DNA from: Delftia sp. PS-11
GTDB taxonomy: Bacteria > Pseudomonadota > Gammaproteobacteria > Burkholderiales > Burkholderiaceae_C
Length of the DNA: 64,000 bases
NCBI RefSeq assembly: GCF_029870285.1
Contig: NZ_JACSYA010000013.1
Coordinates: forward strand, 62,001-126,000
Direction: 5' to 3'
In this document: positions 22,913-64,000 of the stretch, one piece after another
Numbering within the stretch: position 1 is the stretch's first letter
How the letters are laid out: every line of letters begins with the position of its first letter
Translations under genes and position numbers: made by a program
The notes under the pieces: model-generated
What the model saw: the letters and a program-made list of their open reading frames with translations, nothing else
What the model was told of the DNA's origin: nothing
The model's database searches: none

Positions 22913-23366
22913 TCATCATAGCAAACTGCTGCAGACCGTACGGCTCACCCCTCCACCACCGGCAACACAATGCGCGACGCATGGCAGCCGCCCATGTGCA
23001 CGCTGTTGAAAGCCACCTGCCTCGGGCCCGCGCTGTCCGGGCTTTGCTGTGCTCATGCCGCCGCAAGCCATACGGGTGCTGGCTTCGGTGGTGAGTTCAC
23101 CACACGCTCAATGCGCAGCCCCATGCCCCTGCGCGCCATGCAACAGACCACCTGCGCAGGCATGGGCGCCAGCCATGGTTTCAACCGTGCTCCGCTGGCT
23201 ACCATGAAGTGAATAACAAGCTAACAAGCAATCCCAGGCATGGCACCGGGCCATGCCGCCGTGGCCCCCCCCCGCAGGCGCGGGCCGCCGGACCGAACGC
23301 TGTGCAGCGGGCCACCGCCTTGCACAGCGATACCGCTTGACACTTCACACGAGGCAAACAACTCCG
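22913..23366. other. 454-bp gene-poor region with a C9 tract
   Basis: No convincing gene lies between the LexA box and the surface-protein start. Short frames here have no family match or ribosome site. It holds a 7-bp hairpin (GGCATGG 23237-23243 / CCATGCC 23251-23257), a run of nine C at 23265-23273, and the leader of the next gene. Confidence 0.6.
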
Positions 23367-48758: not shown

Positions 48759-48990
48759 GCGCCATCCCCCCTCTGCACGCGCCTGCGCCCCTGCTGTGCG
48801 GCGCAGCCGTCCATGCGCTGCGGGCATGGCCTGCGCGCTCGCTGCCGACAAGCACATCCGCCGCAACACAGGCGGGCAATACCCCTATCGCCATCCTTAG
48901 CATTTTTTGCAGGTTGTAAGCAAACTAACAGCGTTCGAAAGTATCATTTCAATCAAATAAATCATTTAACCCACCATACAGGGAACACCC

Positions 48991-50736: not shown

Positions 50737-51479
50737 GCCTGCGCCACCAGCTCGCCGATACGGGCCTGCAGAAACGCCCAGTGGTCCTGCGCCTGAGTCC
50801 AGTCCTGCTGCAGGCAGGCCTGCTCCAGCTCCTGGGCCCGGTCGGCGGCTGGTGCCAGCCCCAGCATGCGCAGCACGCTCTTGAGGCTGTGCGCCAGGCG
50901 GCGCAAGGCAGCGGCATCGCGCCGCTCCAGCAGACTCTGGCCCAGCGCCAGATCCGAAGGCATCTGCGCAATGCAGGCTGAGCGATAGCTGTCAAACAGC
51001 GCCGCATCGCCCCCGAAGAAGACATCAACCGCCGAAGGCTGCAACTCATCGGCCTGGGCCATGCCAGCGGGATCCGGCTGCGGCGCATCCGGTGCTGCAG
51101 CAGATTCTGCGAGTACCGACTCCACGCATTCCAGCAGTTGCGCCACAGAGACGGGCTTGCGCAAAGTGCGCAGCACCTGCAGCTGCTGCAGGCGCTGCGC
51201 CATCGCCTCATCAATGCCTGCGCTGAAAACCACGGCCGGACAGCCGGCCGCTGAGCCAGACTCGCGCAGCCTCTGCAGCAGCTCCACGCCGGACATGCCC
51301 GGCAGCATCAGGTCGGTGATCAGCAGCGCAAAGCTGCGCTCGCGCAGCAATGGCTCGGCCTGCTCCGCGCTGGTGCAGACCGTCAGCTCCAGCGGCAGCT
51401 CCTCCAGCACCATGGAGACGAAGCGGGCAATGGAAGGGTCGTCCTCGACAAGCAGGACGGCAGCCGCCGCCGCGCTCAT
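50733..51479 (-). CDS. Response regulator fused to an HPt domain
   Basis: A 248-aa protein. Residues 1-~120 are a receiver domain (VLLVEDDPSIARFV, phospho-Asp in LLITDLMLPGMSG, Lys in LRKP). Residues ~150-248 are a histidine phosphotransfer domain with AHSLKSVLRMLGL. It can thus take and pass phosphoryl groups in a relay. It overlaps the MerR-HTH/REC gene upstream (ATGA), so the pair is co-made. Confidence 0.88.
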   Translation of the reverse strand: MSAAAAAVLLVEDDPSIARFVSMVLEELPLELTVCTSAEQAEPLLRERSFALLITDLMLPGMSGVELLQRLRESGSAAGCPAVVFSAGIDEAMAQRLQQLQVLRTLRKPVSVAQLLECVESVLAESAAAPDAPQPDPAGMAQADELQPSAVDVFFGGDAALFDSYRSACIAQMPSDLALGQSLLERRDAAALRRLAHSLKSVLRMLGLAPAADRAQELEQACLQQDWTQAQDHWAFLQARIGELVAQA

Positions 51480-52135
51480 GCCGACTCTGCCTGCAGCAGT
51501 TCCTGCATCACCTGGGGCAGTTGCTGGACCAGTTGCGGCTTGTGGATCACGCGCACGCCGCTGAGCGCGAATGCGTAGGCTTCGCGCTCGGCAGCATCCA
51601 GCGATGTGACCACCAGCAGCTTGCTGCGCGCAAACTGCGCATGTGTGCGCAGTGTGGTGATCAGCGCCGCGCCATCGATGTCGGGCAGCAGGATGTCCAC
51701 CAGCAGCACATCGGGCTGGATCTGTCCGTACAGCGCCATGCCCGTGATGCCATCATGCGCCACATGCAGCTCGACCTGCGGGAAATGGCGCTGCAGCAGC
51801 AGCCGCACCAGATTCTGGAAGTGAACGGAATCTTCAATCAGAAGCACTCGTGTTACGGATTTTGCCGAAGCAGGGCCCTGTGCAGCAGCAGGTATGGACG
51901 CAGGCGCTGCCGCCGCCATAGTAGGTGCAGGTGCCGGCGTCCCCGACTGGCGGGTGCGCCACTGCTCCACGGAAGCCCGGGTGATGCGCCGGTGGCCTCC
52001 AGGCGTCTTCCAGGCCTCCAGTTCGCCCCGGTCCACCATCAGCTGTACCGAACGGACAGCCATGCCTAGCAGATTGGCGACTTCCGCCGTGGTGTAGTGG
52101 GGAATGAGACTGGGGGGTGGGTTGTGCTCTGACAT
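51476..52135 (-). CDS. MerR/excisionase-type HTH fused to a receiver domain
   Basis: A 219-aa protein. Residues ~12-60 are a MerR-like winged helix (YTTAEVANLLGMAVRSVQLMVDRGELEAWKTPGGHRRI). A Pro/Ala linker follows, and then a CheY-like receiver from ~95 (VLLIEDSVHFQNLV, DVLLVDILLPDIDG, VIHKPQ). Having the DNA-binding part first is the reverse of usual response regulators. It may be a phosphorylation-controlled DNA-binding protein. It is translationally coupled to the REC-HPt gene. Confidence 0.85.
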   Translation of the reverse strand: MSEHNPPPSLIPHYTTAEVANLLGMAVRSVQLMVDRGELEAWKTPGGHRRITRASVEQWRTRQSGTPAPAPTMAAAAPASIPAAAQGPASAKSVTRVLLIEDSVHFQNLVRLLLQRHFPQVELHVAHDGITGMALYGQIQPDVLLVDILLPDIDGAALITTLRTHAQFARSKLLVVTSLDAAEREAYAFALSGVRVIHKPQLVQQLPQVMQELLQAESA

Positions 52136-52176
52136 AGCAGCAATTTTGCAGCAAATCTGATTGAAAAATCCAATAA

Positions 52177-52192
52177 CAATTTGATGAAATTG
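52177..52192. promoter_or_regulatory. Palindrome in the divergent response-regulator promoter
   Basis: CAATTT (52177-52182) and AAATTG (52187-52192) flank GATG in the AT-rich 115-bp gap between the MerR-REC gene and the REC gene. This is a plausible site for the adjacent MerR-type regulator, inferred from symmetry and position only. Confidence 0.35.
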
Positions 52193-52250
52193 ATAACTAT
52201 GATAGGATCATTGAAAATCCAGTCTGCCCCTGCGTCGCGAAAGGCTTGCC

Positions 52251-52622
52251 ATGAAAAAAATCCTCATCGTCGAAGACCATGCCGACATCCGCAAGCTCCT
52301 GCGGATGACGCTGGAGTTCAGTGACTTCGACGTCTCGGAAGCCACCAACGGCGATGAGGCGTGGACCGAAGCGCTGCGCATCCGCCCCGACATCGTGCTG
52401 CTCGACGTCATGATGCCCGGCTCCCTGAGCGGGCTGGAGGTGTGCAGCCGCATCAAGACCTGCGACGATCTGCGCCACACCCTGGTGATCCTGCTGACGG
52501 CGCGCGGCAATGCAGAAGACCGCGAGGCAGGCTTCAATGCAGGGGCAGATGAATACCTGGTCAAGCCTTTCAGCACGCTCAAGCTGCTGGAGACCATCGA
52601 GAACCTGGGCAGGAGCGAATGA
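52251..52622 (+). CDS. Single-domain response regulator (CheY-like)
   Basis: A 123-aa protein that is a receiver only: KILIVEDHADIRKLL, DIVLLDVMMPGSLSG with phospho-Asp, LLTAR, and LVKPFS with the conserved Lys. It has no output domain. Its stop overlaps the ATG of the HD-GYP gene, so it probably passes the signal to that phosphodiesterase. Confidence 0.92.
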   Translation: MKKILIVEDHADIRKLLRMTLEFSDFDVSEATNGDEAWTEALRIRPDIVLLDVMMPGSLSGLEVCSRIKTCDDLRHTLVILLTARGNAEDREAGFNAGADEYLVKPFSTLKLLETIENLGRSE

Positions 52623-53386
52623 TGCCCCAGGGTCAGACCCAGCAGCCCGCCGCCGAATCGCAGCGATTCGACCCCGCCGCACTGGCGCAGATGGAGCAGT
52701 TCGTCCATGACTTCGGCCGCATGTACCGCGAGCGCAACGAGCTGCTCAAGGAAGTGACACGTGCACACCACGAAACCCTGCTGCGCCTGGCCATGGCGGC
52801 CGAGTTCAAGGACGACGACACAGGCTCGCACATCATCCGCATCGGCTACCTGGCAGAGGCACTGGCGCTGCGCCTGGGCTGCGCCCCCGACTTCGCCAGC
52901 CTGCTGCGCAAGGCGGCGCCCATGCACGATATCGGCAAAGTCGGCATTCCTGACACCATCCTCAAGAAAAAAGGCCCGCTGACCCCTGAGGAGCGCGCCG
53001 TCATGAACCAGCACACCGAGATCGGTGCCCGGCTGCTGGGCCAGTCGCGCATTCCCGTATTCAAGATGGCCGCCGAAATCGCAGCCTGCCACCATGAGCG
53101 CTTCGACGGCAAAGGCTATGTGCAGGGCCTGGCCGGGGAAGACATCCCGCTGGCGGCGCGCATCACCTCCATCGTCGATATCTTCGATGCGCTGACCATG
53201 GACCGGGTGTACCGGCCTGCCTTCCCCCTGGACAAGGCCCTGAGCATGATCCAGGCAGAGCATGGAAAGGCACTGGACCCCCGGATCGTCGATGTGTTCA
53301 TGGAACACATCGACGAACTCAACGATATCCGTCTGGCACTGACACGGCAGTCACCGAGCTTCAGCGACCTCATTGACACTCCCTGA
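52619..53386 (+). CDS. HD-GYP-type c-di-GMP phosphodiesterase
   Basis: A 255-aa protein with a coiled N-terminus and an HD-GYP domain: MHDIGKVGIPD (HD pair), HTEIGARLL, and HHERFDGKGYVQGLAGEDIPLAARI, where GYV replaces GYP. The metal-binding HD and HH pairs are kept, so activity is possible. It has no receiver of its own; the preceding CheY-like protein likely supplies it in trans. A substrate-binding protein and kinase follow. Confidence 0.85.
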   Translation: MMPQGQTQQPAAESQRFDPAALAQMEQFVHDFGRMYRERNELLKEVTRAHHETLLRLAMAAEFKDDDTGSHIIRIGYLAEALALRLGCAPDFASLLRKAAPMHDIGKVGIPDTILKKKGPLTPEERAVMNQHTEIGARLLGQSRIPVFKMAAEIAACHHERFDGKGYVQGLAGEDIPLAARITSIVDIFDALTMDRVYRPAFPLDKALSMIQAEHGKALDPRIVDVFMEHIDELNDIRLALTRQSPSFSDLIDTP

Positions 53387-53395
53387 GAAACCACC

Positions 53396-54238
53396 ATGCC
53401 TGCTTCCACCACATCGCATTGCCGCAGGGAACAAAGGACCCGCCAGGTCATTTTCCATCTGTTGGCCTCTTTCATGCTGCTCGCGCTGGCGTTCTGGACC
53501 ATGGCGGCACATGCGGGCGAAGTGCTCGACCGCGTACGCGCCAAATCGGTGGTGCGCGTATGCATCTGGCCCGAGTACTACGGCATCACCTTCCGGGACA
53601 CGCGCTCTGGCAGGCTGCAGGGCATGGACGCAGAACTGTCGGCCGAACTGGCCAAGGACCTGGGTGTGCAGGTACAGTACGTGGACTCCTCTTTCCCCCG
53701 CCTGATACCCGACCTGCTGGAGTCGCGCTGCGACGTCGCCATGTTCGCCGTGGGCATGCTGGCGCAGCGCCAGCAGCAGTTGCGCTTCACCCAGCCCTAC
53801 ATGAGCAGCGACATCTACGGCATCACGACCAAGAGCAACCCTGCCGTCAAGTCCTGGGCGGACATCGACAAGCCCGGCGTGCAGGTGGCCGTGCAGCGCG
53901 GCACGTTCATGGAGCCGGTCATGCTCCAGACGCTCAAGCATGCCAACGTGGTGCTGATCGAGCCGCCGCTGACGCGCGAGAAGGAACTGATGGCCGGCCG
54001 TGTCGACGTATTCATGACCGACTACCCCTACAGCCGCCGGCTGCTCGACAGCACTGACTGGGTGCAGCTGATCGCGCCGCCCCAGCCCTTCCATGTGCTG
54101 CCCTATGGCTATGCCGTGCGCCCCGGCGACGCACAATGGCTGGCGCGCCTGGACCAGTTCGTCGCTGACATCAAACGCGACGGGCGGCTGGCCAAGGCGG
54201 CACGCAACAACGGACTCTCTCTGATCGTCCCCCATTGA
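53396..54238 (+). CDS. Periplasmic substrate-binding protein (SBP_bac_3 type)
   Basis: A 280-aa protein with a signal/anchor (FHLLASFMLLALAFWTMAAHA) and a family 3 solute-binding fold: VVRVCIWPEYYGITFRD, GMDAELSAELAKDLGVQ, LLESRCDVAMFAVGM, AVQRGTFMEPVML and DVFMTDYPYSRR. No ABC membrane genes are nearby; instead a sensor kinase follows with a 4-base overlap. It may therefore be a periplasmic signal receptor rather than an importer subunit. Confidence 0.85.
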   Translation: MPASTTSHCRREQRTRQVIFHLLASFMLLALAFWTMAAHAGEVLDRVRAKSVVRVCIWPEYYGITFRDTRSGRLQGMDAELSAELAKDLGVQVQYVDSSFPRLIPDLLESRCDVAMFAVGMLAQRQQQLRFTQPYMSSDIYGITTKSNPAVKSWADIDKPGVQVAVQRGTFMEPVMLQTLKHANVVLIEPPLTREKELMAGRVDVFMTDYPYSRRLLDSTDWVQLIAPPQPFHVLPYGYAVRPGDAQWLARLDQFVADIKRDGRLAKAARNNGLSLIVPH

Positions 54239-56784
54239 CGCAACCCGACAGCACCGTGAACATGCCCCACCGCACAGCCGCACGCCGCCTGCAAGGCACC
54301 CGGCATACAGCCCAGATCAAGGCCCTGATACTGACCTTCGCGCTGTGCGTGCTGGCTGGCCTGGTGCTCTATGTCTGGAGCCAGCTGCATGTGCAGGCAG
54401 ACCATAGCAAGGGCCAGGCCACGCTGCTGGCCCGCGTGCTGGAAGACCAGACCGCCCGGACCTTCGAGACCAGCGAGGTGGCGCTGACGAGCCTGGCGCA
54501 CAACCCCGTCATCCAGGCCCGTGACGGCACACGCGCCGCACGCGAGGCCGCACTGATGCAGGCAGTCGCGCAGTTGCCTTTTCTGCGAGGCATGGCGCAG
54601 CTGGACGCGCAGGGCCGCATCCTGGCCAGCACCCAGCCGGGCGATGTTGGCCTGCAGATTGCCATCGACCAGTTGCTGGACAGCAAGGCCCGGGCCCTCT
54701 CGCCGGGCAAGCCCCAGCTGGGACTCCTGATCCCGGGCCGGGGCCTGTCGGCGCTGGCGCCCGGTGCCAAAGCCGCGCCGCGCGGCGTGGCCTTTCTGCC
54801 CCATGTGCTGGGCTTTATCCAGGAAGACGGCAAGCTGGGCGTGCTGGTGGCGCTGATCAACCCTGACGCCGTGGCCAACTTCTACCAGGCCACGCTCGAA
54901 GACCTGAGCTACGAGGCCGTGCTGCTGTCCTACGACGGCAGGCCGCTGGCCAGCAGCAATGCAGGCGCTGGCGTACAGATGCAATGGGCGCTGCAGACGC
55001 TCATCTTCAAAAGCCAGCCACGCCCTGAGCTGGGCTCCTACATCGGCGCCGGCATGCTGGGCGAGCATGAAGTCGTGTCCTTTCGCGCCGTGCGCAACTG
55101 GCCCCTGATGCTGGTGGTCGAGGAGCCCTACTCGGCCGTCGTGGCCCGCTGGCGCCAGGATGCCTTCGCGTTTTTTGTGGCCGGCGTGGCGCTGCTCATG
55201 CTGGTTCTGATCCTCGGCCTGTCCGTGCTCAGGACACGCAGGCTGCAGCTCTCGGCGCAGCGGGACATGGAGCAGGCCCAGGCGCGCATTGCCCGCAGCG
55301 AGCACGAGCTGGCCGTGATCATGCGCAGCGTTCAGGAGCTGATCTTCCGCACCGACAGCAAGGGCCTGCTCACCTTCGTCAACGCCCGCTGGGAAAAGCT
55401 CACCGGCCAGACCAGCGAAAAGGCGCTGGGACGGCACCTGGAGGGCATCGTGGACGAGCGCTACAAGCCACAGATCCAGGCCCTGCTGGACCCCCAGGCC
55501 ACGCTGCGCCCGCGCTCGTGCCAGGCGCTGTTCAAACTGCCCAACGGCAAGGAAATGCTGTGCGACATCGCAGTCGTACCTCTGCTGCGCGAGGGCCGAC
55601 TGGCCGGTTTCGCCGGCAGCGCCGTGGACGTGACGGCGCGCTGGAAGGCGCAGCAGGAGCTGCAGACCCAGCTGGCCTTCCAGCATCTGCTGTTCGAGAC
55701 CACGCCGCTGCCCATGCTGGTCACGGACTCCAAGCACCGCGTCGCCCTGGTCAACAAGGCCTGGGAGGACTTCTGCGGCAAGAGCCGCTACTCCGTGCTG
55801 GGCTCCGAGCTGACCGGTTTTCTGCCGCGCGACGATGCACTGCTGCAAATGCAAAGCAATGCCCAGGTCCTGAGCCAGGGCCAGAGCATGACCATCGAAG
55901 CCAAGATACCCCATGTCGATGGCAGCTACCGCGACATGCAGATCGCCAAGGCGGCCGTGAAAAATGCCGACGGCCAGATCACGGGCGTGCTCAGCATCTC
56001 CGTGGACGTCAGCGAATTCCGCGCGGCAGAGCACGCCACGCGGGAAGCGCGCGATGCGGCGGAAGAAGCCTTCCGCGTGAAATCGGAATTCGTCGCCAAC
56101 ATGAGTCACGAGCTGCGTACCCCCCTGCAATCCATCATGGGCTTTGCGGAACTGGGCGGCATGCGCGCGCGCGCCACCCCCAAGCTGGCCGAAATGTTCA
56201 ACGACATCCACGCCTCCGGCCAGCGCATGCTGGCGCTCGTCAACGACCTGCTGGACGTTGCCAAGCTCGAAAGCGCCATGGGCACCATGCACCTGGAGCG
56301 CATCGACCTGCGCAACCTGATCCGCCCCGTGGTGAGGGAGCTGGAGCCGCTGCAGCACCAAAAGCAGATCGATTTGCGCCTGCAGCTGGACGAAGACCCC
56401 CTGGTCGCCAAGGCCGACCCGGTGCGCTTCCAGCAGGTCATCCGCAACGTGCTGGCCAACGCCATCAAGTTCTCGCCCGCCGGCGGGCGCATCGAGCTGC
56501 GGGCCATGCTCGATGGCCAGGGCAACATCCGCATCGACTGCACCGATCAGGGGCCGGGCATTCCACCCCAGGAACTGGAAAACATCTTCCAGCCCTTCGT
56601 GCAATCGAGCAAGACCAAGGACGGCTCCGGCGGCACCGGGCTGGGCCTGGCCATCTGCCGCAAGATCATCGACGCCATGGACGGCTCCATCGTCGCGGCC
56701 AACCGATCCGGCGGAGGCTCCCTGTTCCGCATTCTGCTGCCCAGCCGCAATCTCTTCGAGACCCAGCCGGCCGAGCTGATGTAG
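54235..56784 (+). CDS. Membrane sensor histidine kinase with PAS domains
   Basis: An 849-aa kinase. TM1 (ALILTFALCVLAGLVLYVW) and TM2 (AFFVAGVALLMLVLILGLSVL) bound a ~265-residue periplasmic sensor. Two PAS domains follow, then a HisKA with MSHELRTPLQSI and an ATPase with NAIKFSP, DQGPGIPP and GTGLGLAI. There is no receiver, so it is a classical kinase. The start is uncertain: TTG 54235 overlaps the upstream stop, while ATG 54262 gives a shorter form. Probable partners are the response regulators just upstream. Confidence 0.88.
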   Translation: MTQPDSTVNMPHRTAARRLQGTRHTAQIKALILTFALCVLAGLVLYVWSQLHVQADHSKGQATLLARVLEDQTARTFETSEVALTSLAHNPVIQARDGTRAAREAALMQAVAQLPFLRGMAQLDAQGRILASTQPGDVGLQIAIDQLLDSKARALSPGKPQLGLLIPGRGLSALAPGAKAAPRGVAFLPHVLGFIQEDGKLGVLVALINPDAVANFYQATLEDLSYEAVLLSYDGRPLASSNAGAGVQMQWALQTLIFKSQPRPELGSYIGAGMLGEHEVVSFRAVRNWPLMLVVEEPYSAVVARWRQDAFAFFVAGVALLMLVLILGLSVLRTRRLQLSAQRDMEQAQARIARSEHELAVIMRSVQELIFRTDSKGLLTFVNARWEKLTGQTSEKALGRHLEGIVDERYKPQIQALLDPQATLRPRSCQALFKLPNGKEMLCDIAVVPLLREGRLAGFAGSAVDVTARWKAQQELQTQLAFQHLLFETTPLPMLVTDSKHRVALVNKAWEDFCGKSRYSVLGSELTGFLPRDDALLQMQSNAQVLSQGQSMTIEAKIPHVDGSYRDMQIAKAAVKNADGQITGVLSISVDVSEFRAAEHATREARDAAEEAFRVKSEFVANMSHELRTPLQSIMGFAELGGMRARATPKLAEMFNDIHASGQRMLALVNDLLDVAKLESAMGTMHLERIDLRNLIRPVVRELEPLQHQKQIDLRLQLDEDPLVAKADPVRFQQVIRNVLANAIKFSPAGGRIELRAMLDGQGNIRIDCTDQGPGIPPQELENIFQPFVQSSKTKDGSGGTGLGLAICRKIIDAMDGSIVAANRSGGGSLFRILLPSRNLFETQPAELM

Positions 56785-56789
56785 GACTA

Positions 56790-56913
56790 AGAACCGCTAA
56801 CACGACCCAGCAAATCGAAGATTTGCGGTTGAGACGAGGCGCGAAGCCGCAGGCAGTACAACCAGTACGACAAGGCGAAGCAACGACGTATCAAGGGTTG
56901 TGTTAGCGGTTCT
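56790..56913. repeat. 124-bp MITE-like element with 19-bp terminal inverted repeats
   Basis: AGAACCGCTAACACGACCC (56790-56808) matches the reverse complement of 56895-56913 at 18 of 19 positions; the odd pair would be G-U in RNA. Inside, GCAAATC-GAA-GATTTGC (56810-56826) is a perfect hairpin. TA dinucleotides occur at both outer edges. It fills the whole gap between two convergent genes and has no ORF. Confidence 0.7.
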
Positions 56914-56919
56914 AACTGC

Positions 56920-57822
56920 TCACACAGAACAGTGGTCCATCCCCGGCAGGCACTCCCCGACCACGCGCTCAATGAGATCCGTGTCCGGCGATGCTGCGAG
57001 CGCACGGGCGGTGTTGCGCTTGCCTGTGGCGAGCAGGCCTGTGCTGGTTGAAGCGATCGTGTATTCGCTGTGGCAGGCCGGGCAGTAGAGAGTGTCTCCA
57101 GGCTTGGCACTGCGCGGGCGCACGACGATGGGGCCGCAGGCTGCGCAGCGCTCCAGCGGAATGCCTGCATCGCTGTGGCCGACGATATGCGCCAGCTCCG
57201 GGTGCCGGGCCAAGCCGACGAAAAGCTGGCCCAGCCGGGCATCGAATTGACGGCCGAGTTCACTCTCGATGATCTCGATGGCACGCGCAACCGGCATGCC
57301 GGTGCGGTAGGGCCGTGTGCTGGTCATCGCATCGAAGGCATCGCAAATGCCGACGATGCGAGCCACCAGCGGAATGTCATCGCCGCGCCGGCCATAGGGA
57401 TAGCCGCGCCCGTCCGGCGTCTCATGGTGCAGCAGTACCGCGTCCTGCGCCAGCGCCGCGAGCGGATGGCCTGCCAGCATGCGCAGGCCGATTTCAGGAT
57501 GGGTCTTGATCACGGCATATTCATCGCCATCGAGCTTGCCCTTTTTGCCCAGCACCGCATCCGGAATTCCTATCTTGCCCAGATCATGCAGAAAAGCGCC
57601 GATGGTGATGCGGCAGACCTCTTGCGGTGCAAGCCCTGCCGTCTCGGCCAGCAGCCGTGACAGGCGGGCCACGCGCCACAGATGGCCGCCGGTATAGGGA
57701 TCTCGCGCCTCCACCGCCCATGCCAGCAGGAACAGGCTGAACAGCAGCCTGTCGGCACGCTGTGCATCGGGGAGGTCAGGTGCCTTGCGCCTGGCGCGCT
57801 GCCACAGAGAGAGCAGGTTCAT
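56920..57822 (-). CDS. HD-GYP protein with C-terminal zinc-ribbon-like motif
   Basis: A 300-aa protein. Residues ~25-200 are an HD-GYP domain with FLHDLGKIGIPD and the full HHETPDGRGYPYG signature, predicted to hydrolyse c-di-GMP. Residues ~225-262 hold CAAC and CPAC, spaced like a zinc ribbon. There is no sensor or receiver domain. It lies 58 bp upstream of, and on the same strand as, none of the sigma-F genes' transcripts' start, being downstream of nrsF on the minus strand, so read-through from that operon is possible. Confidence 0.85.
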   Translation of the reverse strand: MNLLSLWQRARRKAPDLPDAQRADRLLFSLFLLAWAVEARDPYTGGHLWRVARLSRLLAETAGLAPQEVCRITIGAFLHDLGKIGIPDAVLGKKGKLDGDEYAVIKTHPEIGLRMLAGHPLAALAQDAVLLHHETPDGRGYPYGRRGDDIPLVARIVGICDAFDAMTSTRPYRTGMPVARAIEIIESELGRQFDARLGQLFVGLARHPELAHIVGHSDAGIPLERCAACGPIVVRPRSAKPGDTLYCPACHSEYTIASTSTGLLATGKRNTARALAASPDTDLIERVVGECLPGMDHCSV

Positions 57823-57880
57823 GGAAAAATTTCTTGAATGCCGCTGATTGAACAGCCCTGATGGATATCGTCCGTCTGCG

Positions 57881-58522
57881 CTACCAGCGCAGCAGGCGGG
57901 GCCCCAGGCACAGACCGGCTGCCGCGGGGATCAGTATGCCGAGGAAATACCACAGCCCCCAGAAAGGCACGCCCATCTCAGGGCAGTGCAGGCAATACAC
58001 CACGGTGGCGATGGAGCCAGCCAGCAAACCGGCCACTGCGCCGGTCAGGCGCAGCCGGGTCGGCGCCATGGCGCGCACAGCCCAGACGATGGTCACGCAC
58101 AGAGGCAGCGACAGCAGAGCGATGTTGAACGGGCAACTGCGCCACGAAAATCCCATCAGCAGAGGCAGGCGTTCGGCCACAGGGGCGCCCGCCAGTACGA
58201 CCGCACTGGCAATCCATACCGTCAACCCCGGTGCAGCAATGCCAAGCCAGTTGCGGCCGACACGCAGGCCGGGGCGCAGCAGCCGGCGCAATACCAGCAG
58301 CGAGCCTGCCGCCATCGCGGCAGGGAAAGCCAGCTTGGCCCAGAACAGCGGCACCCCCATCATCAGCGCAAGATCGGCACGCAGCCCATAGATCAGCAAC
58401 ATCAGCGCCAGCGAGCAGGCGCTGCCAAGAGACAGGGCCTGCACCATGCGCCGCAGCGGCAGGCGCAGGTCCACTGGCGCCACATTGGTGGACATCATCT
58501 CGATCAAATCATCGGTCTTCAT
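57881..58522 (-). CDS. nrsF: NrsF-type (DUF1109) membrane anti-sigma factor, distal copy
   Basis: A 213-aa protein with six predicted membrane helices ([55 protein letters not shown] among them). The family cysteines are in [14 protein letters not shown] and CLHCPEMG. In Caulobacter NrsF holds the ECF factor sigma-F at the membrane and releases it under metal stress. Its ATG overlaps the sigF stop, so the two are co-translated. It is clearly paralogous to the protein encoded at 59192-59842. Confidence 0.88.
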
Positions 58523-59175
58523 GGTGAAAGCTTCTCCCGGATTTTGGCGGCCAGCGCCTTCAGGCCACGGTGCACACCGACCTTCACCGCAGACTCGCTC
58601 ATGCCGGTCAGTTGAGCGGTTTCCGCCACCGACAGCCCTTCCAGCTTGACATGCAGGATGGGCAGGCGCTGGCGGTCGGGCAATTGCTCAAGCAGCGCCC
58701 TGACATCGCGCCGGGCCTGCGCAGGCTCATCGTCGCAGGCGGCAAACAGCTCATGCTCGTCACCCAGCGGATCATTGAAAGCCTCGCGGCGTGCGCGTGC
58801 ACGCAGGAAATCCATCAGTTTGTAGCGGGCGATGGCATGCACCCAGGCCGTCAGCGGCTGGTCGGCGCGGTAGGTGTGGCGCGCGTTATGCACGGCCAGC
58901 AGGGTTTCCTGGACAAGATCCTCGACCTCATCTTGCAGGTGCTGCAGCCGCTTGCGCAGAAAGGCGCGCAGGCGGCTGCTGAGTTCAGACAGAAAGCTGC
59001 GGTACGCCACGGCGTCGCCGTCCAGTCCGGCAAGCAGCAATGCGCGCAGGCGCTCTTCCGCCGGATGCTGCGGCTGCTTGCCCACCGGCGCCACGGGGCG
59101 GACAGCGGCATGGCTGCCGTCATCGGACGGATCATGAACGAATTCGTTGGCGAACAACGGTTGGCTATTGGTCAT
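58519..59175 (-). CDS. sigF: ECF RNA polymerase sigma factor, sigma-F type
   Basis: A 218-aa ECF sigma factor. Region 2 is [20 protein letters not shown]...[15 protein letters not shown]...[18 protein letters not shown]. Region 4 is [47 protein letters not shown] 59175 is chosen because region 2 starts at normal distance. It lies between two nrsF genes in one minus-strand operon. The expected target motif GTAACC-N16-CGAA lies before its own operon and before the facing bufferin operon. Confidence 0.92.
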
Positions 59176-59191
59176 GGAGCACGTCCCAGGC

Positions 59192-59842
59192 TCACCAGCG
59201 CAGCAATACAGGTGCGCACAGCGCGCCCACAAGCGCCGGAGCCAGCACCCCCAGCACATACCAGACGCCCCAGAACGGCGGCGCCATTTCCGCACAGTAC
59301 AGTGAATACACTAGCACGCCCTGCGCGCCTGCCACCAGGCCGGCCATGGCACCGGCCTCAGCCAGCCGGGTTGGCGCCAGACCGCGCATGAACCAGAACA
59401 TGGCGGCCAGCGTCGGCAGCGACAGCAGGGCGATGTTGCCCGAGCAGACCTCCCAGGTGCTGCCCAGCAGCAGTTGCAGCCGCTGCGACGGCGGCGCCAG
59501 CGCCAGCCACACGGCTCCCGCCAGCCACAGTGCCAAAAGGGACAGCAGCAGCGCGGCTGCCGGCCTCGTGCCGATGCGCGCACCCGGGCGCGCCAGGCGG
59601 GCGGCGCCAGTCTGCGCAGCCAGCAGCACTGCAAGCGGAAACGACACTTTCAGCCAGAACAGCGGCTGCTGCAGCAACTGCGGCATGTCGCTGCGCACGC
59701 CATAGATCACGGCCAGCAGCAGCGCCGAGCCCACCATGCCCGAGGCCAGCGCCATCTCCATGCGCGCACCGGTGGCTGCATGCCGGCCAGCCATGCCATC
59801 AGTGCCTGCCGCCAGCATATCGACCAGCTCCATCGTCTTCAT
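59192..59842 (-). CDS. nrsF: NrsF-type (DUF1109) membrane anti-sigma factor, promoter-proximal copy
   Basis: A 216-aa six-helix membrane protein aligned along its length with the distal copy: [49 protein letters not shown]. The two sensor-type cysteines are kept (C in WEVC and YC), but one of the pair in CLHC is a Tyr-adjacent single Cys here. ATG 59842 has AAAGGAG at five bases. An in-frame ATG at 59899 would add a Cys-rich stretch but lies at or before the expected transcript start. Confidence 0.88.
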
Positions 59843-59855
59843 CGGGTCTCCTTTG

Positions 59856-59891
59856 TTGCAGCCGCACTTGCAGCCGCACTTGCAGCCGCAC
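59856..59891. repeat. Three tandem copies of a 12-bp unit in the nrsF leader
   Basis: TTGCAGCCGCAC is repeated three times without change between the predicted -10 and the ribosome site of the sigma operon. Read on the minus strand in the nrsF frame it would encode alternating Cys-Gly-Cys-Lys. It may be leader RNA only. Confidence 0.85.
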
Positions 59892-59902
59892 CTTCTCACC
59901 TA

Positions 59903-59928
59903 TTCGCCCGCCATGGCCATCTGGTTAC
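59903..59928 (-). promoter_or_regulatory. Sigma-F-type promoter of the nrsF-sigF-nrsF operon
   Basis: On the minus strand GTAACC (59928-59923) is followed by 16 bases and CGAA (59906-59903), an exact match to the sigma-F promoter reported for Caulobacter. It lies ~60 bp before the first nrsF start, implying autoregulation. Confidence 0.8.
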
Positions 59929-59944
59929 AGCGCATGCAAAAAAT

Positions 59945-59957
59945 ATTTCCTGGAAAT
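59945..59957. promoter_or_regulatory. Short palindrome between the divergent sigma-F promoters
   Basis: ATTTCC-T-GGAAAT is a perfect 6-bp inverted repeat in the AT-rich centre between the two -35 elements. It could bind a second regulator. No known family motif was recognised. Confidence 0.3.
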
Positions 59958-59971
59958 TTGCGGAGACGGCT

Positions 59972-59997
59972 GTAACCGATGCACCCGCCCCGGCGAA
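59972..59997 (+). promoter_or_regulatory. Sigma-F-type promoter of the bufferin operon
   Basis: GTAACC (59972-59977), 16 bases, then CGAA (59994-59997), identical in layout to the divergent site on the other strand. It lies 66 bp before bufA, leaving room for a short leader with AAGGAG before the start codon. Confidence 0.82.
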
Positions 59998-60063
59998 ATA
60001 GCTTGCAGACCGGCAGTTGGACAGCCGCCGGTCACCCCCCTTCCAACCCTCAAGGAGCCCACC

Positions 60064-60345
60064 ATGAATGCACGCATCGCCGCTACTACCGCCGCCCTGA
60101 CACTCGCCACACTGGCCTGCGGCGCGGCCATGGCGCAAAGCCAGCAGCCCGCCGCCAAAACCGCCGTCGAAAAATGCTACGGCGTCTCGCTGGCAGGCCA
60201 GAACGACTGCAAGGCCGGCGAAGGCACTACCTGCGCAGGAACGGCCAAGATGGACTACCAGGGCAATGCCTGGAAAAACGTTCCGGCCGGCACCTGCACA
60301 TCGATCAAGACCCCTCGCGGCATGGGTTCGCTCAAGCCCTTCTGA
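60064..60345 (+). CDS. bufA: Bufferin-type precursor peptide (DUF2282), copper-binding RiPP
   Basis: A 93-aa precursor with a signal peptide ([20 protein letters not shown]...AMAQ) and four mature cysteines: C38 (EKCYGV), C49 ([11 protein letters not shown]), C57 ([14 protein letters not shown]) and C78 (AGTC). This is the DUF2282/BufA pattern. In this family the DUF692 enzyme modifies core cysteines, and the exported peptide binds copper in the periplasm. AAGGAG precedes ATG 60064. It is the first gene of the operon behind a sigma-F-type promoter. Confidence 0.92.
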
Positions 60346-60359
60346 GCACAGTGCTGCAC

Positions 60360-61208
60360 ATGGACGCGACATCGCTTGCAGCGGGCCTGGGCCTCAAGCC
60401 CCAGCATTTCGACGCAGCACTCGCCTGTGCCGCGCCGGGTCTGTGGTTCGAGGTCCACCCGGAGAACTACATGATGGACGGCGGCCCGCGCCTGGCATGG
60501 CTGGAGGCCGTGCGCAGCCGCCATCCGCTGTCGCTGCATGGCGTGTCGCTGTCGTTGGCCGGTCCGGATGCGCCGGATCCGGTCCATCTGCGGCGCCTGG
60601 CGCAACTGGTGGCACGCACCGAGCCGGCGCTGGTGTCAGAGCATCTGGCATGGTCGCGCGCCGGCGGCCGCTATTTTCCGGACCTGCTGCCGGTGCCGCG
60701 CACCCGCCAGACGCTGGAGCGACTGGCAGGCAACATCGCGCGCACCCAGGATGCGCTCAAGCGCCATATCGCGCTGGAAAATCCGTCGCACTACCTGCGC
60801 ATGGATGGCCACGAATGGAGCGAGCCGGACTTTCTGAGCGAACTGGTGCGCCGCACCGGCTGCGGCCTGCTGGTGGATGTCAACAACGTCCATGTCAGCG
60901 CGGTCAATCTGGGCTTCGATGCAGCGGCCTATCTTGCCCAATTGCCATCGCAGGCTATTGAGGAAATCCACCTGGCCGGACACAGCTGCGACGCGGGCCT
61001 GCCCGGGCTGCTGATCGATTCGCATGACACGGCCGTGGCCCAGCCGGTATGGGCGCTGTACCAGGCGCTGGTGGCGCGCACCGGGCCGAGGCCGACGCTG
61101 ATCGAGCGCGATGGCCATGTGCCGGAGTTCGGCGCGCTGCTGGCAGAGCGCGACATCGCGCAGGACATCCTTGCATCACACCAGCCACTGCAGGAATACG
61201 CATCGTGA
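60360..61208 (+). CDS. bufB: DUF692 multinuclear non-heme iron oxidase (MNIO), bufferin-modifying
   Basis: A 282-aa TIM-barrel enzyme. The iron-binding residues of the family are visible: [10 protein letters not shown] (H60), SEHLAW (E94, H95), [21 protein letters not shown] (D173, N176, H178), EIHLAGH (H204, H208) and LIERDG (E249). MNIOs of this type install Cys-derived heterocycles in precursor peptides with a partner protein. ATG 60360 is 14 bases after bufA; GTG 60351 is an alternative. The stop overlaps bufC (GTGA). Confidence 0.92.
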
Positions 61209-61954
61209 GCCGCAGCGACTACTACAGCGCCTTCATGGACGCCATCCATCAAGGCCACAGTGCCGATCCGCAGGTGGCAGCGCTGCTGGCGCAACCGGCC
61301 TTCGCGGTCTATCGCAACACCATTTTCAAGGGCGTCACCGACGCGCTGGCCGCCAATTACCCGGCGGTACGGCGGCTGGTTGGCCAAGCCTGGTTCCATT
61401 CAGCGGCACTGGCTTACGCACGGCAGCATATGCCGGACGATGCCTGCCTGATCACCTATGGCCAGCACTTCCCCGCGTTCCTTGCGGGTGCGCAGGCGGC
61501 AGCCGACTTGCCCTATCTGGCGGACGTGGCAGCGCTGGACCGCAGCTGGAGCGAGTCGCATCTGGCGGCGGACGACCCGCTGCTGAACGCGGCCGGCCTG
61601 CACGCGGCGCTGACCGCAGGGCGCAATGTCCGCCTGACGCTGCACGCAGCAGCGCGCTGGCACTGGAGTGCGCAACATCCCTGCTACGCCATCTGGGACG
61701 CCAGCCGCAGGGATGACACGGCCCCCATGGAGCAGCCCGAATGGCGTGGCGAGGGCGCCCTGCTGACACGGCCGCAAGGCAGCGTGCTATGGCGGCAGAT
61801 CGGTTATGGCACCTGCTGCTTTCTGGACGCCTGCCGCGCCGGAGCGGACATCGCCGAGGCTGCCGCACTGGCGCTGGCGAACGAGCCGGACATCGACGTG
61901 GCCGCCATGCTGGGCGAGCTGCTGCAGGCCGGCGCCTTCACTTGTTTTCATTGA
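61205..61954 (+). CDS. bufC: DUF2063-type partner protein for the MNIO enzyme
   Basis: A 249-aa protein. The N-terminal DUF2063 part reads [32 protein letters not shown], then [23 protein letters not shown]. The C-terminal region resembles a RRE-like recognition fold. In bufferin and similar systems this protein binds the precursor and assists the DUF692 enzyme. Its GTG start at 61205 overlaps the bufB stop, so the two are made together. Confidence 0.9.
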
Positions 61955-61965
61955 CGGAGAACGGC

Positions 61966-62442
61966 ATGAACCCTCCCACCCTGGCGCCACAAGGCGGCGA
62001 AACGCTCAGCCGCCCATCGCTGTGGTCCCGCGCCGCTGCGCTGGCGCAGCGCCTGATCTGCGACAGCCTGCTGTCGCTGGTGGCACGCATAGCAATCGCA
62101 GCCATCTTCTTCCTGTCGGGGCGCACCAAGGTCACCGGCCTGCTGACCATCAAGGACAGCACCTACGTGCTGTTCCAGGAAGAATATCGCCTGCCGCTGG
62201 TGCCGCCGGACATCGCAGCCCACCTGGCGGTCTACGCCGAACACCTGTTGCCGCTGCTGCTGGTGCTGGGCCTGTTCACGCGCGGCGCCGCGCTGGCGCT
62301 GCTGGGCATGACCGCCGTGATCGAGGTATTCGTCTACCCGGACGCCTGGCCCACACATCTGTCCTGGGCGGGCCTGCTGCTGCTGCTGATGGCGCGCGGC
62401 GGCGGTGCCCTCTCGCTGGACCACAGGCTCGGCATTCGCTGA
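61966..62442 (+). CDS. bufD: DoxX-family membrane protein of the bufferin operon
   Basis: A 158-aa protein with four membrane helices ([64 protein letters not shown]), the DoxX layout. DoxX-like proteins are regular members of bufferin and related operons; their exact task is not known. ATG 61966 has GGAG seven bases upstream and starts 11 bases after bufC. Confidence 0.85.
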
Positions 62443-62458
62443 ATCGGGGGAGCTGCTC

Positions 62459-64000
62459 ATGCTGGCCAAACTGAAAATACGCACCGGACTGCTGCTGGTG
62501 CTGGGCATCTTTTCAATGGCGCTGTGGAGCGCGGTCTACATGGCGTGGAGCGGGGCGCGCTCATCAGCGCAAGCGACCGCTGCACTGATCGATTTGTCGG
62601 ACAGACGCATACAGCCGCTGCATGACACCGAGCGGCTTTTCCTGTCTGCACTGATCAGCATGGACAACGCCTACATCAACCTGCTCAAGGGCGACCAGAT
62701 CAAGTCCAACGACTACACGCGCCGTGCCTCGGCTGCGCTTCAGGAAGTCAAAAAGACATTCGATACCTACCTGAAAGGTCTGCCACCACACGCCATGGAT
62801 GAAGCGGATGCACGGCGCGTAGCGCAGGCTTACGAAGCCTACATTCATGTGCTTGGCCTGCGCGAAGTGGCGCTGTACGACGTATCGCTGGACGACTATG
62901 CCACGGCAACGGCCAGCGCCGAACAGGCAGACCGCGAATTTGCCGCCACTCTGCGCAACGTGATCGCCCATGCCGAGTCGGTACGTGACGAACTGCGCTC
63001 TGCGTCGGAGCAACGCTACGCCAGCGCCACATACCTTGCCGCAGCCATGCTCCTGTGCTCGCTGCTGCTGGTGGGAGGCTACTGGGCGCTGTTCGATCGG
63101 GTGCTGCTGCGCCCGCTCAAGGCAGCCAGCCGCCACTTCGACCGCATTGCCAATGGAGATTTGAGTTCACAGGTACAGGGCATTTCAGACAACGAAATCG
63201 GCGTACTGCTGGCAGCTCTGGACCGCATGCAAAGTGGACTGGCTGGCACAGTCGCCCACATACGCGACGCTACGACAGACGTCAACCGGGGCGCGTGCGA
63301 GATCGCCCACGGCAACAGCGATTTGGCGCAGCGCACTGAGCGCCAGGCCGCCGCCCTGCAAGAAACGGCCGCCACGCTGGAACAGCTCTCGGCCGCGATA
63401 CGCAACAATGCCGAAAATGCAGGCCGCACCAGCCAGCTGGCAGCCGACGCTGCCAACGATGCCAAACGCGGCGGCAAGGTCATGGATGGCATTGCCGGCG
63501 CGATGGAACAGGTCACAGCAAGCGCCAGTCGCATTTCCGATATCGTCAGCGTGATCGATGGCATTGCTTTCCAGACCAACATTCTGGCGCTCAACGCATC
63601 GGTGGAGGCATCACGTGCCGGAACGCAAGGACGCGGCTTCTCAGTGGTGGCGGCGGAAGTGCGCTCGCTGGCACTGCGCAGCGCCGAAGCCGCACGCGAG
63701 GTCAAGGGGCTGATCACCGCCTCGGTCACGTCAGTGGCACGTGCCTCACAGCAGGTGGCGCAGGCACACCATACGATGGGGCAGATCGTAGACTCCTTCG
63801 GACACGTGATGAAGACCGTCAATGACATTGCCACAGCCACGCATGAGCAGGCCGAGGGCATCGGCCAGGTCAGCCGCACCGTCGTCGAAATGGACCGCTC
63901 CACGCAGCAAAACACAGCACTGGTGGAACAGACCTCGGCAGCGGCAGCCACGCTGACGTCCCAGGCCAACGCCCTATCGGAATCCGTCGCCGTGTTCACG
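62459..64000 (+). CDS. Methyl-accepting chemotaxis protein (Tar-like sensor), 3' end cut by window
   Basis: The open frame starts at ATG 62459 behind GGGGAG and is still open at the window end (514 codons). TM1 (TGLLLVLGIFSMALWSAVYM), a TarH-like four-helix sensor (about 30-190), TM2 (ATYLAAAMLLCSLLLVGGYW), HAMP, and a signalling domain follow. The tip reads [31 protein letters not shown], differing from the usual [19 protein letters not shown]. It begins only 16 bases after the DoxX stop, so it probably belongs to the sigma-F bufferin operon. Confidence 0.9.
   Translation, partial: MLAKLKIRTGLLLVLGIFSMALWSAVYMAWSGARSSAQATAALIDLSDRRIQPLHDTERLFLSALISMDNAYINLLKGDQIKSNDYTRRASAALQEVKKTFDTYLKGLPPHAMDEADARRVAQAYEAYIHVLGLREVALYDVSLDDYATATASAEQADREFAATLRNVIAHAESVRDELRSASEQRYASATYLAAAMLLCSLLLVGGYWALFDRVLLRPLKAASRHFDRIANGDLSSQVQGISDNEIGVLLAALDRMQSGLAGTVAHIRDATTDVNRGACEIAHGNSDLAQRTERQAAALQETAATLEQLSAAIRNNAENAGRTSQLAADAANDAKRGGKVMDGIAGAMEQVTASASRISDIVSVIDGIAFQTNILALNASVEASRAGTQGRGFSVVAAEVRSLALRSAEAAREVKGLITASVTSVARASQQVAQAHHTMGQIVDSFGHVMKTVNDIATATHEQAEGIGQVSRTVVEMDRSTQQNTALVEQTSAAAATLTSQANALSESVAVFT

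What the first reader, a model, noticed from the sequence alone, without database searches (positions are those of the whole stretch)
59192..64000. Sigma-F/NrsF-controlled bufferin (copper-peptide) operon
Seen: sigF with NrsF partners, facing DUF2282 peptide, DUF692 oxidase, DUF2063 partner and DoxX. Known: this set defines the bufferin pathway, in which the modified peptide binds copper. The precursor here has four mature Cys and a signal peptide. The locus is a complete RiPP metallophore system in a betaproteobacterium.
Basis: partly seen in the sequence, partly recalled or inferred. Interest (0 to 1): 0.85.

Follow-up and report, generated by a model that had tools for sequence, protein, structure and literature searches.

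The report
Copper-peptide operon with motility sensor
A bacterium related to Delftia and Comamonas carries a known type of operon predicted to make a modified copper-binding peptide, but here its stress switch has two different sensor proteins and its last gene encodes a motility sensor, hinting that copper defence and movement may be linked.

Summary
The window has a complete Buf1 bufferin operon (bufA DUF2282, bufB MNIO, bufC DUF2063, doxX), divergent from an ECF sigma factor with two NrsF anti-sigma genes; sigF and the second nrsF lie left of the stated start. Both sides carry an exact copy of the published SigF promoter (GTAACC-N16-CGAA), the only two exact copies in the 5.44-Mb draft genome. 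This core is a known system.

Two features go beyond it. (1) The two NrsF are not equivalent: 44% identical, with different residues around the conserved Cys pair. Of 62 family genomes with NrsF matches, only this one listed two adjacent full copies; 4 of 7 Herbaspirillum loci share the layout. (2) A chemoreceptor gene starts 16 nt after doxX. Close relatives sit beside a bufferin gene in 5 of 5 other genomes read: after doxX in three genomes of another genus, and after bufA in two Herbaspirillum satellite loci with a lone NrsF1-type gene.

Best reading: a horizontally acquired SigF regulon that couples copper buffering to chemotaxis under a two-sensor switch. The receptor's ligand and the peptide chemistry are inferred. 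New variant of a known kind.

The parts
57881..58522 (-). nrsF2: NrsF anti-sigma factor (213 aa), 'YCLHCPE' type; start codon overlaps the sigF stop
   Evidence: PF06532 224.4 bits; NCBIfam NrsF equivalog 141.6 bits, below its cut-off of 300; groups with 7 Herbaspirillum NrsF2 (100/99)
58519..59175 (-). sigF: ECF sigma factor (218 aa)
   Evidence: Sigma70_r2 and r4_2 above cut-off; NF009188 328.8 bits, cut-off 250
59192..59842 (-). nrsF1: second NrsF anti-sigma factor (216 aa), 'YSLYCAE' type, both conserved Cys kept; ATG preceded by AAAGGAG
   Evidence: PF06532 209.8 bits; NCBIfam equivalog 114 bits, below 300; 44% identical to nrsF2; 7-row clade 100/100
59903..59928 (-). SigF-type promoter of nrsF1-sigF-nrsF2: GTAACC-N16-CGAA
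   Evidence: exact match; present in 7 of 7 Herbaspirillum loci; motif published for Caulobacter SigF
59972..59997 (+). SigF-type promoter of bufABC-doxX-mcp: GTAACC-N16-CGAA
   Evidence: exact match; present in 7 of 7 Herbaspirillum loci
60064..60345 (+). bufA: DUF2282 (Buf1) bufferin precursor, 93 aa, signal peptide (by eye), four mature Cys
   Evidence: PF10048 87.7 bits; four Cys invariant in the 13 rows aligned; only DUF2282 match in the genome
60360..61208 (+). bufB: MNIO bufferin maturase (282 aa)
   Evidence: PF05114 331.9 bits; NF050167 357.8 bits, cut-off 310; best PDB sequence match 3bww; all searched as 60363-61208
61205..61954 (+). bufC: DUF2063 partner protein (249 aa), GTG start overlapping bufB
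   Evidence: PF09836 75.9 bits; HvfC equivalog 33.1 bits, below cut-off 142
61966..62442 (+). doxX: DoxX membrane protein (158 aa)
   Evidence: PF07681 62.5 bits; HvfX equivalog 42.8 bits, below cut-off 80
62459..64000 (+). mcp: chemoreceptor (TarH sensor, HAMP, MCP signalling domain), 536 aa; continues about 69 bases past the window
   Evidence: TarH 50.9, HAMP 34.0, MCPsignal 161.5 bits; 16 nt after doxX; relatives beside a bufferin gene in 5 of 5 other genomes read

Best explanation
The locus is a SigF regulon in two divergent transcripts: nrsF1-sigF-nrsF2 on one side, bufA-bufB-bufC-doxX-mcp on the other. Shown by sequence: the genes, their tight spacing, and exact SigF promoters on both sides. 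Inferred from the characterised Caulobacter system: NrsF1 and NrsF2 hold SigF at the membrane; metal stress acting on their conserved Cys pair releases it; SigF then drives both promoters. Inferred from characterised bufferins: BufB with BufC turns the two central Cys of BufA into thiooxazoles, the outer two form a disulphide, and the Sec-exported peptide buffers copper in the periplasm. New here: two NrsF with different residues around the Cys pair would let one sigma factor answer two signals or thresholds, and the same promoter should place a dedicated chemoreceptor in the membrane during metal stress, coupling detoxification to a change in swimming. The locus was probably acquired from a Herbaspirillum-like donor. 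My confidence by step: bufferin operon under SigF 0.93; mcp a real part of this regulon 0.75; both NrsF act on SigF 0.65; receptor reports copper or bufferin state 0.35.
For: Genes and scores. Promoters: exact published motif, two in the genome, 44 bp apart and divergent, present in 7 of 7 Herbaspirillum loci. Single exact matches are background (46 of 53 genus genomes have at least one), but in that listing only this genome has two side by side. MCP linkage: of 299 family genomes sampled only the window genome and G298 list this sensor at E<=1e-20, and G298's gene follows doxX of its own bufferin operon. In G298's genus 3 of 26 genomes match, all 3 in bufC-doxX-mcp order, a 26% paralogue in one of them left out. 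Of 6 Herbaspirillum genomes 2 match, both in a satellite locus nrsF1 / bufA-mcp with exact SigF motifs on both sides. The satellite genes are intact, with dN/dS between the two copies of 0.07 (bufA), 0.24 (nrsF1), 0.12 (mcp). No sigma-70-like site was found in 57800-62700 and no terminator-like site between doxX and mcp. NrsF1: clade of 7 at 100/100. In Caulobacter copper raises sigF, nrsF, DUF2282, DUF692 and doxX transcripts, and a sigF mutant grows poorly with copper (PMC8224329, passages).
Against: No expression or chemistry data for this organism. mcp is absent (E<=1e-10) from 4 of the 6 Herbaspirillum genomes tested, and it does not follow doxX in 19 of 20 family loci or 7 of 7 Herbaspirillum main loci checked, so it is optional; 12 further family loci with doxX were not checked. 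In the satellites a 234-246 nt gap separates bufA and mcp, and that gap is as conserved between the two (90%) as the genes (89-96%), so divergence is low and only dN/dS speaks for selection. The receptor's only PDB sequence match is an aromatic acid chemoreceptor (6s18, E 1.8e-4), and its presumed periplasmic part has no Cys. A terminator-like site lies inside bufB (60651), at the chance rate (4 found in the scan, shuffles 3.0). The bufferin survey names precursor, MNIO, DUF2063 and DoxX as the core. Neither NrsF reaches NCBI's equivalog cut-off. Genome searches scored only the best 8-10 candidates per genome in the large samples, so a second copy could be missed.
Confidence: 0.75

Rival explanations
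1. Ordinary Buf1 bufferin operon; the chemoreceptor is a chance neighbour with its own regulation and NrsF1 is a redundant duplicate.
For: The core matches the published cluster. The mcp is not downstream of doxX in 19 of 20 family loci and 7 of 7 Herbaspirillum main loci checked.
Against: 5 of 5 other genomes read with a close relative of this receptor have it beside bufA or doxX, in two layouts and two other genera. Satellite loci keep nrsF1, bufA and mcp intact, dN/dS 0.07-0.24, with no sigF, bufB, bufC or doxX match beside them. NrsF1 is a distinct clade.
Confidence: 0.2
2. The receptor is in the regulon but senses something other than metal, for example an aromatic acid, and copper only sets its expression level.
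For: Weak match over residues 1-198 to an aromatic acid chemoreceptor. No Cys in the presumed periplasmic part; His55 and Met68 occur in 53 and 58 of 58 aligned rows, so they do not mark the linked members.
Against: Linkage to a metal-buffering peptide in three genera is hard to explain for an unrelated ligand. The match is remote.
Confidence: 0.35
3. The regulon answers mainly to another metal or oxidant (chromate, cadmium, gold) and copper is secondary.
For: Caulobacter SigF is involved in the responses to chromium and cadmium (PMC3511200, abstract); the homologous operon of Cupriavidus and Legionella was named for gold (PMC5413113, passages).
Against: The Caulobacter SigF regulon is copper-induced and its mutant copper-sensitive; the bufferin survey ties the family to copper.
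Confidence: 0.2

Closest known systems
Caulobacter crescentus SigF-NrsF regulon (CC3252-CC3257)
   Same: Same kind of sigma/anti-sigma pair, same promoter motif, and a target operon with DUF2282, DUF692 and DoxX genes
   Different: One NrsF is described there, two non-equivalent NrsF here; no chemoreceptor among the SigF-controlled genes in the table passage seen; the two operons are divergent here
Buf1 (DUF2282) bufferin gene clusters
   Same: The four core genes and the sigma/NrsF genes reported for Buf1 clusters
   Different: The survey's main text has no 'chemotaxis' or 'methyl-accepting', and it counted unrelated genes only within 10 bp, so a gene 16 nt away would be passed over
Dual-NrsF bufferin loci of Herbaspirillum (L003-L006)
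   Same: Same nrsF1-sigF-nrsF2 / bufABC-doxX layout and promoters; NrsF1 76-82% identical
   Different: No relative of this mcp in those four genomes at E<=1e-10
McpR copper chemoreceptor of Caulobacter
   Same: A chemoreceptor tied to copper stress
   Different: McpR is cytoplasmic and its Cys75 and His99 matter for copper (abstract); this one has a TarH sensor without Cys in its presumed periplasmic part

Membership tests
Buf1 bufferin cluster | DUF2282 precursor with signal peptide and four conserved Cys | tested here: met
   PF10048 87.7 bits; four mature Cys invariant in 13 rows; signal peptide judged by eye, SignalP not run
Buf1 bufferin cluster | MNIO maturase of the bufferin type | tested here: met
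   NF050167 357.8 bits, cut-off 310; 48 of 48 conserved columns kept
Buf1 bufferin cluster | DUF2063 partner protein and DoxX | tested here: met
   PF09836 and PF07681 above cut-off; the NCBI HvfC and HvfX equivalogs are not reached
Buf1 bufferin cluster | Central Cys turned into thiooxazoles that bind copper | not testable with these tools
   needs mass spectrometry and metal binding
Buf2 bufferin (BufA2) | BufA2 equivalog score | tested here: not met
   NF050166 23.1 bits, cut-off 60
SigF-NrsF regulon | SigF promoter GTAACC-N16-CGAA upstream of sigF operon and target operon | tested here: met
   two exact matches in the genome, both here
NrsF anti-sigma factors | PF06532 domain with two conserved Cys | tested here: met
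   both copies
NrsF anti-sigma factors | NCBI equivalog AntiSigF_NrsF (NF042994) cut-off | tested here: not met
   114 and 141.6 bits against 300
NrsF anti-sigma factors | Six membrane segments and binding to SigF | not tested
   topology and binding not run here
Methyl-accepting chemotaxis protein | Sensor, HAMP and MCP signalling domains | tested here: met
   three Pfam domains above cut-off; no NCBIfam receptor equivalog reaches its cut-off
Copper chemoreceptor (McpR-like) | Cytoplasmic receptor whose sensor uses a Cys and a His for copper | tested here: not met
   TarH sensor; no Cys between the presumed membrane segments

The most novel reading that the evidence does not exclude
The modified bufferin works as a periplasmic binding protein for this chemoreceptor: metal-loaded (or metal-free) BufA docks on the sensor domain, as periplasmic binding proteins dock on E. 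coli Tar (recalled), so the copper peptide is both buffer and taxis signal. The satellite loci that keep only bufA and mcp with an NrsF1 are what one would expect from such a pair. SigF would then run a combined fight-and-flight response with two anti-sigma sensors of different selectivity.
Probability: 0.15. Interest if true: 0.85.

Novelty: new variant of a known kind. Interest (0 to 1): 0.52.

Why it matters
Bufferins are described as copper-chelating peptides. A chemoreceptor in the same SigF regulon in several genera would tie copper detoxification to behaviour, which the Caulobacter papers I saw treat separately. One sigma factor with two non-equivalent NrsF sensors also gives a natural test of what the NrsF Cys pair senses.

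Tried and rejected
Cys-rich N-terminal extension of NrsF1: a 12-bp unit repeated three times (59856-59891) lies upstream of nrsF1 and would read as [11 protein letters not shown] from a GTG at 59899. Rejected: that GTG lies 3 nt after the CGAA element, so probably at or before the transcript start; a good ribosome site precedes the ATG at 59842; and the repeat is absent from the 7 Herbaspirillum loci aligned.

NrsF1 as a recent duplicate of NrsF2: rejected. The tree separates them (7 rows 100/100 against 8 rows 100/99), and the 'YxLYC' motif of NrsF1 is in 86 of the 120 listed homologues (231 found), including Paraburkholderia and Trinickia proteins.

Satellite locus as a decayed full operon: weak. 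Of 90 comparisons of the bufA-mcp gaps with BufB, BufC and DoxX, 4 reached z>4. Three point to the BufC C-terminus, one of them scoring below its best shuffle; the fourth, to BufB, looks like chance. No DoxX match reached z>4, and nothing convincing for sigF or nrsF2 lies downstream of the satellite nrsF1. Not claimed.

Plasmid carriage: NrsF1 relatives on plasmids are all below 60% identity (106 records) and the receptor sensor has no plasmid match. No tRNA in the window, GC not unusual.

Contig-length coincidence: 6 contig lengths are shared between the 53 receptor homologues and the 120 listed NrsF homologues, all 6 with the YxLYC motif. One (24018) is the contig of L112, so it is not independent, and one (5239286) is chromosome-sized, so it says little on distance. 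The other contigs were not read. A lead only.

Other MCP domains: MCP signalling-domain matches also occur in L005, L059 and L100, not adjacent to bufferin genes.

Literature: DUF2282 with 'methyl-accepting chemotaxis' gave 0 papers; the listings for NrsF/DUF1109 and 'two anti-sigma' showed no title or abstract start about two NrsF per SigF. A paper identifier that I recalled for the founding bufferin paper is not held. Only open-licence PMC papers were searched, so absence is not proof.

Not done: structure prediction, SignalP, membrane topology, protein-protein docking.
Full report
What is there. The right end of the window holds, on the plus strand, bufA (60064-60345), bufB (60360-61208), bufC (61205-61954), doxX (61966-62442) and an mcp gene (62459 to about 64069, past the window end). 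On the minus strand it holds nrsF1 (59192-59842), sigF (58519-59175) and nrsF2 (57881-58522). Spacing is tight: bufB and bufC overlap by 4 nt, sigF and nrsF2 by 4 nt, doxX to mcp is 16 nt. The assignments pass Pfam cut-offs. BufB passes NCBI's bufferin maturase model; BufC, DoxX and both NrsF fall short of the NCBI equivalog cut-offs nearest to them. bufB was searched as 60363-61208, without its first Met. bufA is the only DUF2282 match in the genome, and the two nrsF genes are its only NrsF matches.

Control. The SigF motif GTAACC-N16-CGAA published for Caulobacter (PMC3511200, passage) occurs exactly twice in the 5.44-Mb draft genome. The two copies are divergent and 44 bp apart, between nrsF1 and bufA (the pattern read backwards gave 6 matches). 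Exact single matches are common in the genus (46 of 53 genomes), but no other genome in that listing has two side by side. The divergent pair is present in 7 of 7 Herbaspirillum loci. With no further exact site, this locus looks like the whole exact-motif SigF regulon; inexact sites were not searched.

Origin. A bufB search of named genomes, which reaches close relatives only, returned 7 loci, all Herbaspirillum, from 6 genomes. Best-segment identities to the window are SigF 79-86%, BufA 84-89%, BufB 77-83%, BufC 61-65%, DoxX 79-87%. In the window's own genus 1 of 53 genomes has NrsF and 1 of 53 has DUF2282, in both cases the window genome. A peptidase gene on the same contig is 89% identical to a Delftia tsuruhatensis protein and 82% to a Comamonas composti protein. 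A Herbaspirillum-like bufferin locus acquired by a Delftia/Comamonas relative is the simplest account. The insertion site could not be shown.

Two NrsF. Of 299 family genomes sampled, 62 have an NrsF match. Only the window genome lists two adjacent full-length genes; G003 has one gene in three pieces, and G053 and G171 have a partial second match on another contig (at most 10 candidates scored per genome). Of 369 class genomes, 21 match and again only the window genome lists two (at most 8 scored). Among the 7 Herbaspirillum loci, 4 have the double arrangement (L003-L006) and 3 a single NrsF (L007-L009). I fetched loci of 58 of the 61 other family genomes (not G124, G209, G296). In a tree of 73 NrsF rows (of 76 made; the pieces of L068 left out), NrsF1 is a clade of 7 (100/100) and NrsF2 of the window plus Herbaspirillum a clade of 8 (100/99). 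Both keep the two Cys whose replacement in Caulobacter raises SigF-dependent expression (PMC3511200, section 9) and the MKT N-terminus. Around them NrsF1 differs: Glu two residues before the first Cys (7 of 7) and Ser after it (7 of 7; 5 of the 66 other rows), and Tyr before the second Cys (7 of 7; 1 of 66, where 48 have His). Different sensing by the two is inferred from this, not shown.

The chemoreceptor. The gene has TarH, HAMP and MCP signalling domains. Its first 202 residues match 2 of 299 family genomes at E<=1e-20, the window's and G298. In G298 the gene lies 81 nt after doxX of a bufABC-doxX operon and matches over residues 1-513 (53%). In G298's genus, 3 of 26 genomes match at E<=1e-5, and the best match of each is in bufC-doxX-mcp order; for G714 and G715 the full bufABC-doxX operon and SigF-NrsF were read too. 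One further 26% match in G714 is a paralogue and was left out. Of the 6 genomes behind the Herbaspirillum loci, 2 match at E<=1e-10 (G740, G741), on contigs other than the main bufferin locus. There the receptor follows a second bufA, 234-246 nt downstream, and that bufA faces a NrsF1-type gene with no sigF match in the 16 kb read. Both satellites carry exact SigF motifs on both sides. Their bufA keeps all four mature Cys. dN/dS between the two satellites is 0.07 for bufA, 0.24 for nrsF1 and 0.12 for mcp, though the gap itself is as similar (90%) as the genes. G740 is a metagenome assembly that also holds two main loci (L007, L009), so it may mix strains. So in 5 of 5 other genomes read, the close relative of this receptor sits beside a bufferin gene, in two layouts. 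Against this, doxX is not followed by it in 19 of 20 family loci or 7 of 7 Herbaspirillum main loci checked (G298's own row failed there because the stretch was cut short, and was settled). Twelve further family loci with doxX (of 32) were not checked. It is an optional, not a core, part.

What the receptor may sense. Between the presumed membrane segments (about residues 32-190, by eye) there is no Cys. Conserved residues such as His55 and Met68 are shared by 53 and 58 of 58 aligned relatives and do not mark the linked ones. The only PDB sequence match is an aromatic acid chemoreceptor (6s18, E 1.8e-4). Copper or bufferin sensing is therefore a hypothesis from linkage alone. A copper chemoreceptor known in Caulobacter, McpR, is cytoplasmic and different (PMC10579534, abstract).

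Comparison with what is known. Buf1 clusters with sigma and NrsF genes are described, with central Cys modified and outer Cys in a disulphide (PMC12452194, abstract, sections 4, 8 and 14 and passages). Thiooxazoles in related peptides were confirmed for other precursors (PMC13097082, passages). In Caulobacter the SigF regulon, including DUF2282, DUF692 and DoxX genes, is copper-induced and a sigF mutant is copper-sensitive (PMC8224329, passages). The survey says further conserved genes are found in extremely low proportions; its main text does not contain 'chemotaxis' or 'methyl-accepting', and it accepted unrelated genes only within 10 bp, so this receptor at 16 nt or more would not have been counted. 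The core here is thus already known. The double NrsF and the linked receptor make it a new variant. My search found no paper holding both DUF2282 and methyl-accepting chemotaxis, within the open-licence papers held.

Verdict. Ordinary in its core, interesting at its edges: one sigma factor, two unlike anti-sigma sensors, a copper-peptide operon and a chemoreceptor in one small regulon, with satellite loci in two other genomes that keep the bufferin, the receptor and NrsF1 together.

Noticed in passing
window 59856-59891: Three exact copies of a 12-bp unit in the 5' region of nrsF1, absent from the 7 Herbaspirillum loci aligned; could read as a Cys-rich extension but probably lies in the untranslated leader.
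   Followed up: partly
window 46086-57822: A run of signalling genes beside the locus: PAS-GGDEF-EAL, a second chemoreceptor, response regulators (one with Hpt, one with HTH), a PAS histidine kinase and an HD-domain protein.
   Followed up: partly
L111 1795-4852 and L112 7483-10528: Satellite loci in two Herbaspirillum genomes: NrsF1-type gene facing bufA and mcp, exact SigF motifs on both sides, no sigF match beside them.
   Followed up: yes
L007 and L009 (G740): A Herbaspirillum metagenome assembly holds two complete main bufferin loci; the NrsF2 of one is nearly identical to that of strain ASV7. Possibly mixed strains.
   Followed up: no
L071 2274-4699: Downstream of mcp, on the other strand: a GNAT/autoinducer-synthase-like protein next to a fatty acid desaturase-like protein.
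   Followed up: no
window 23253-27398: A 1382-aa protein with seven DUF5122 matches and an RTX calcium-binding repeat match.
   Followed up: no
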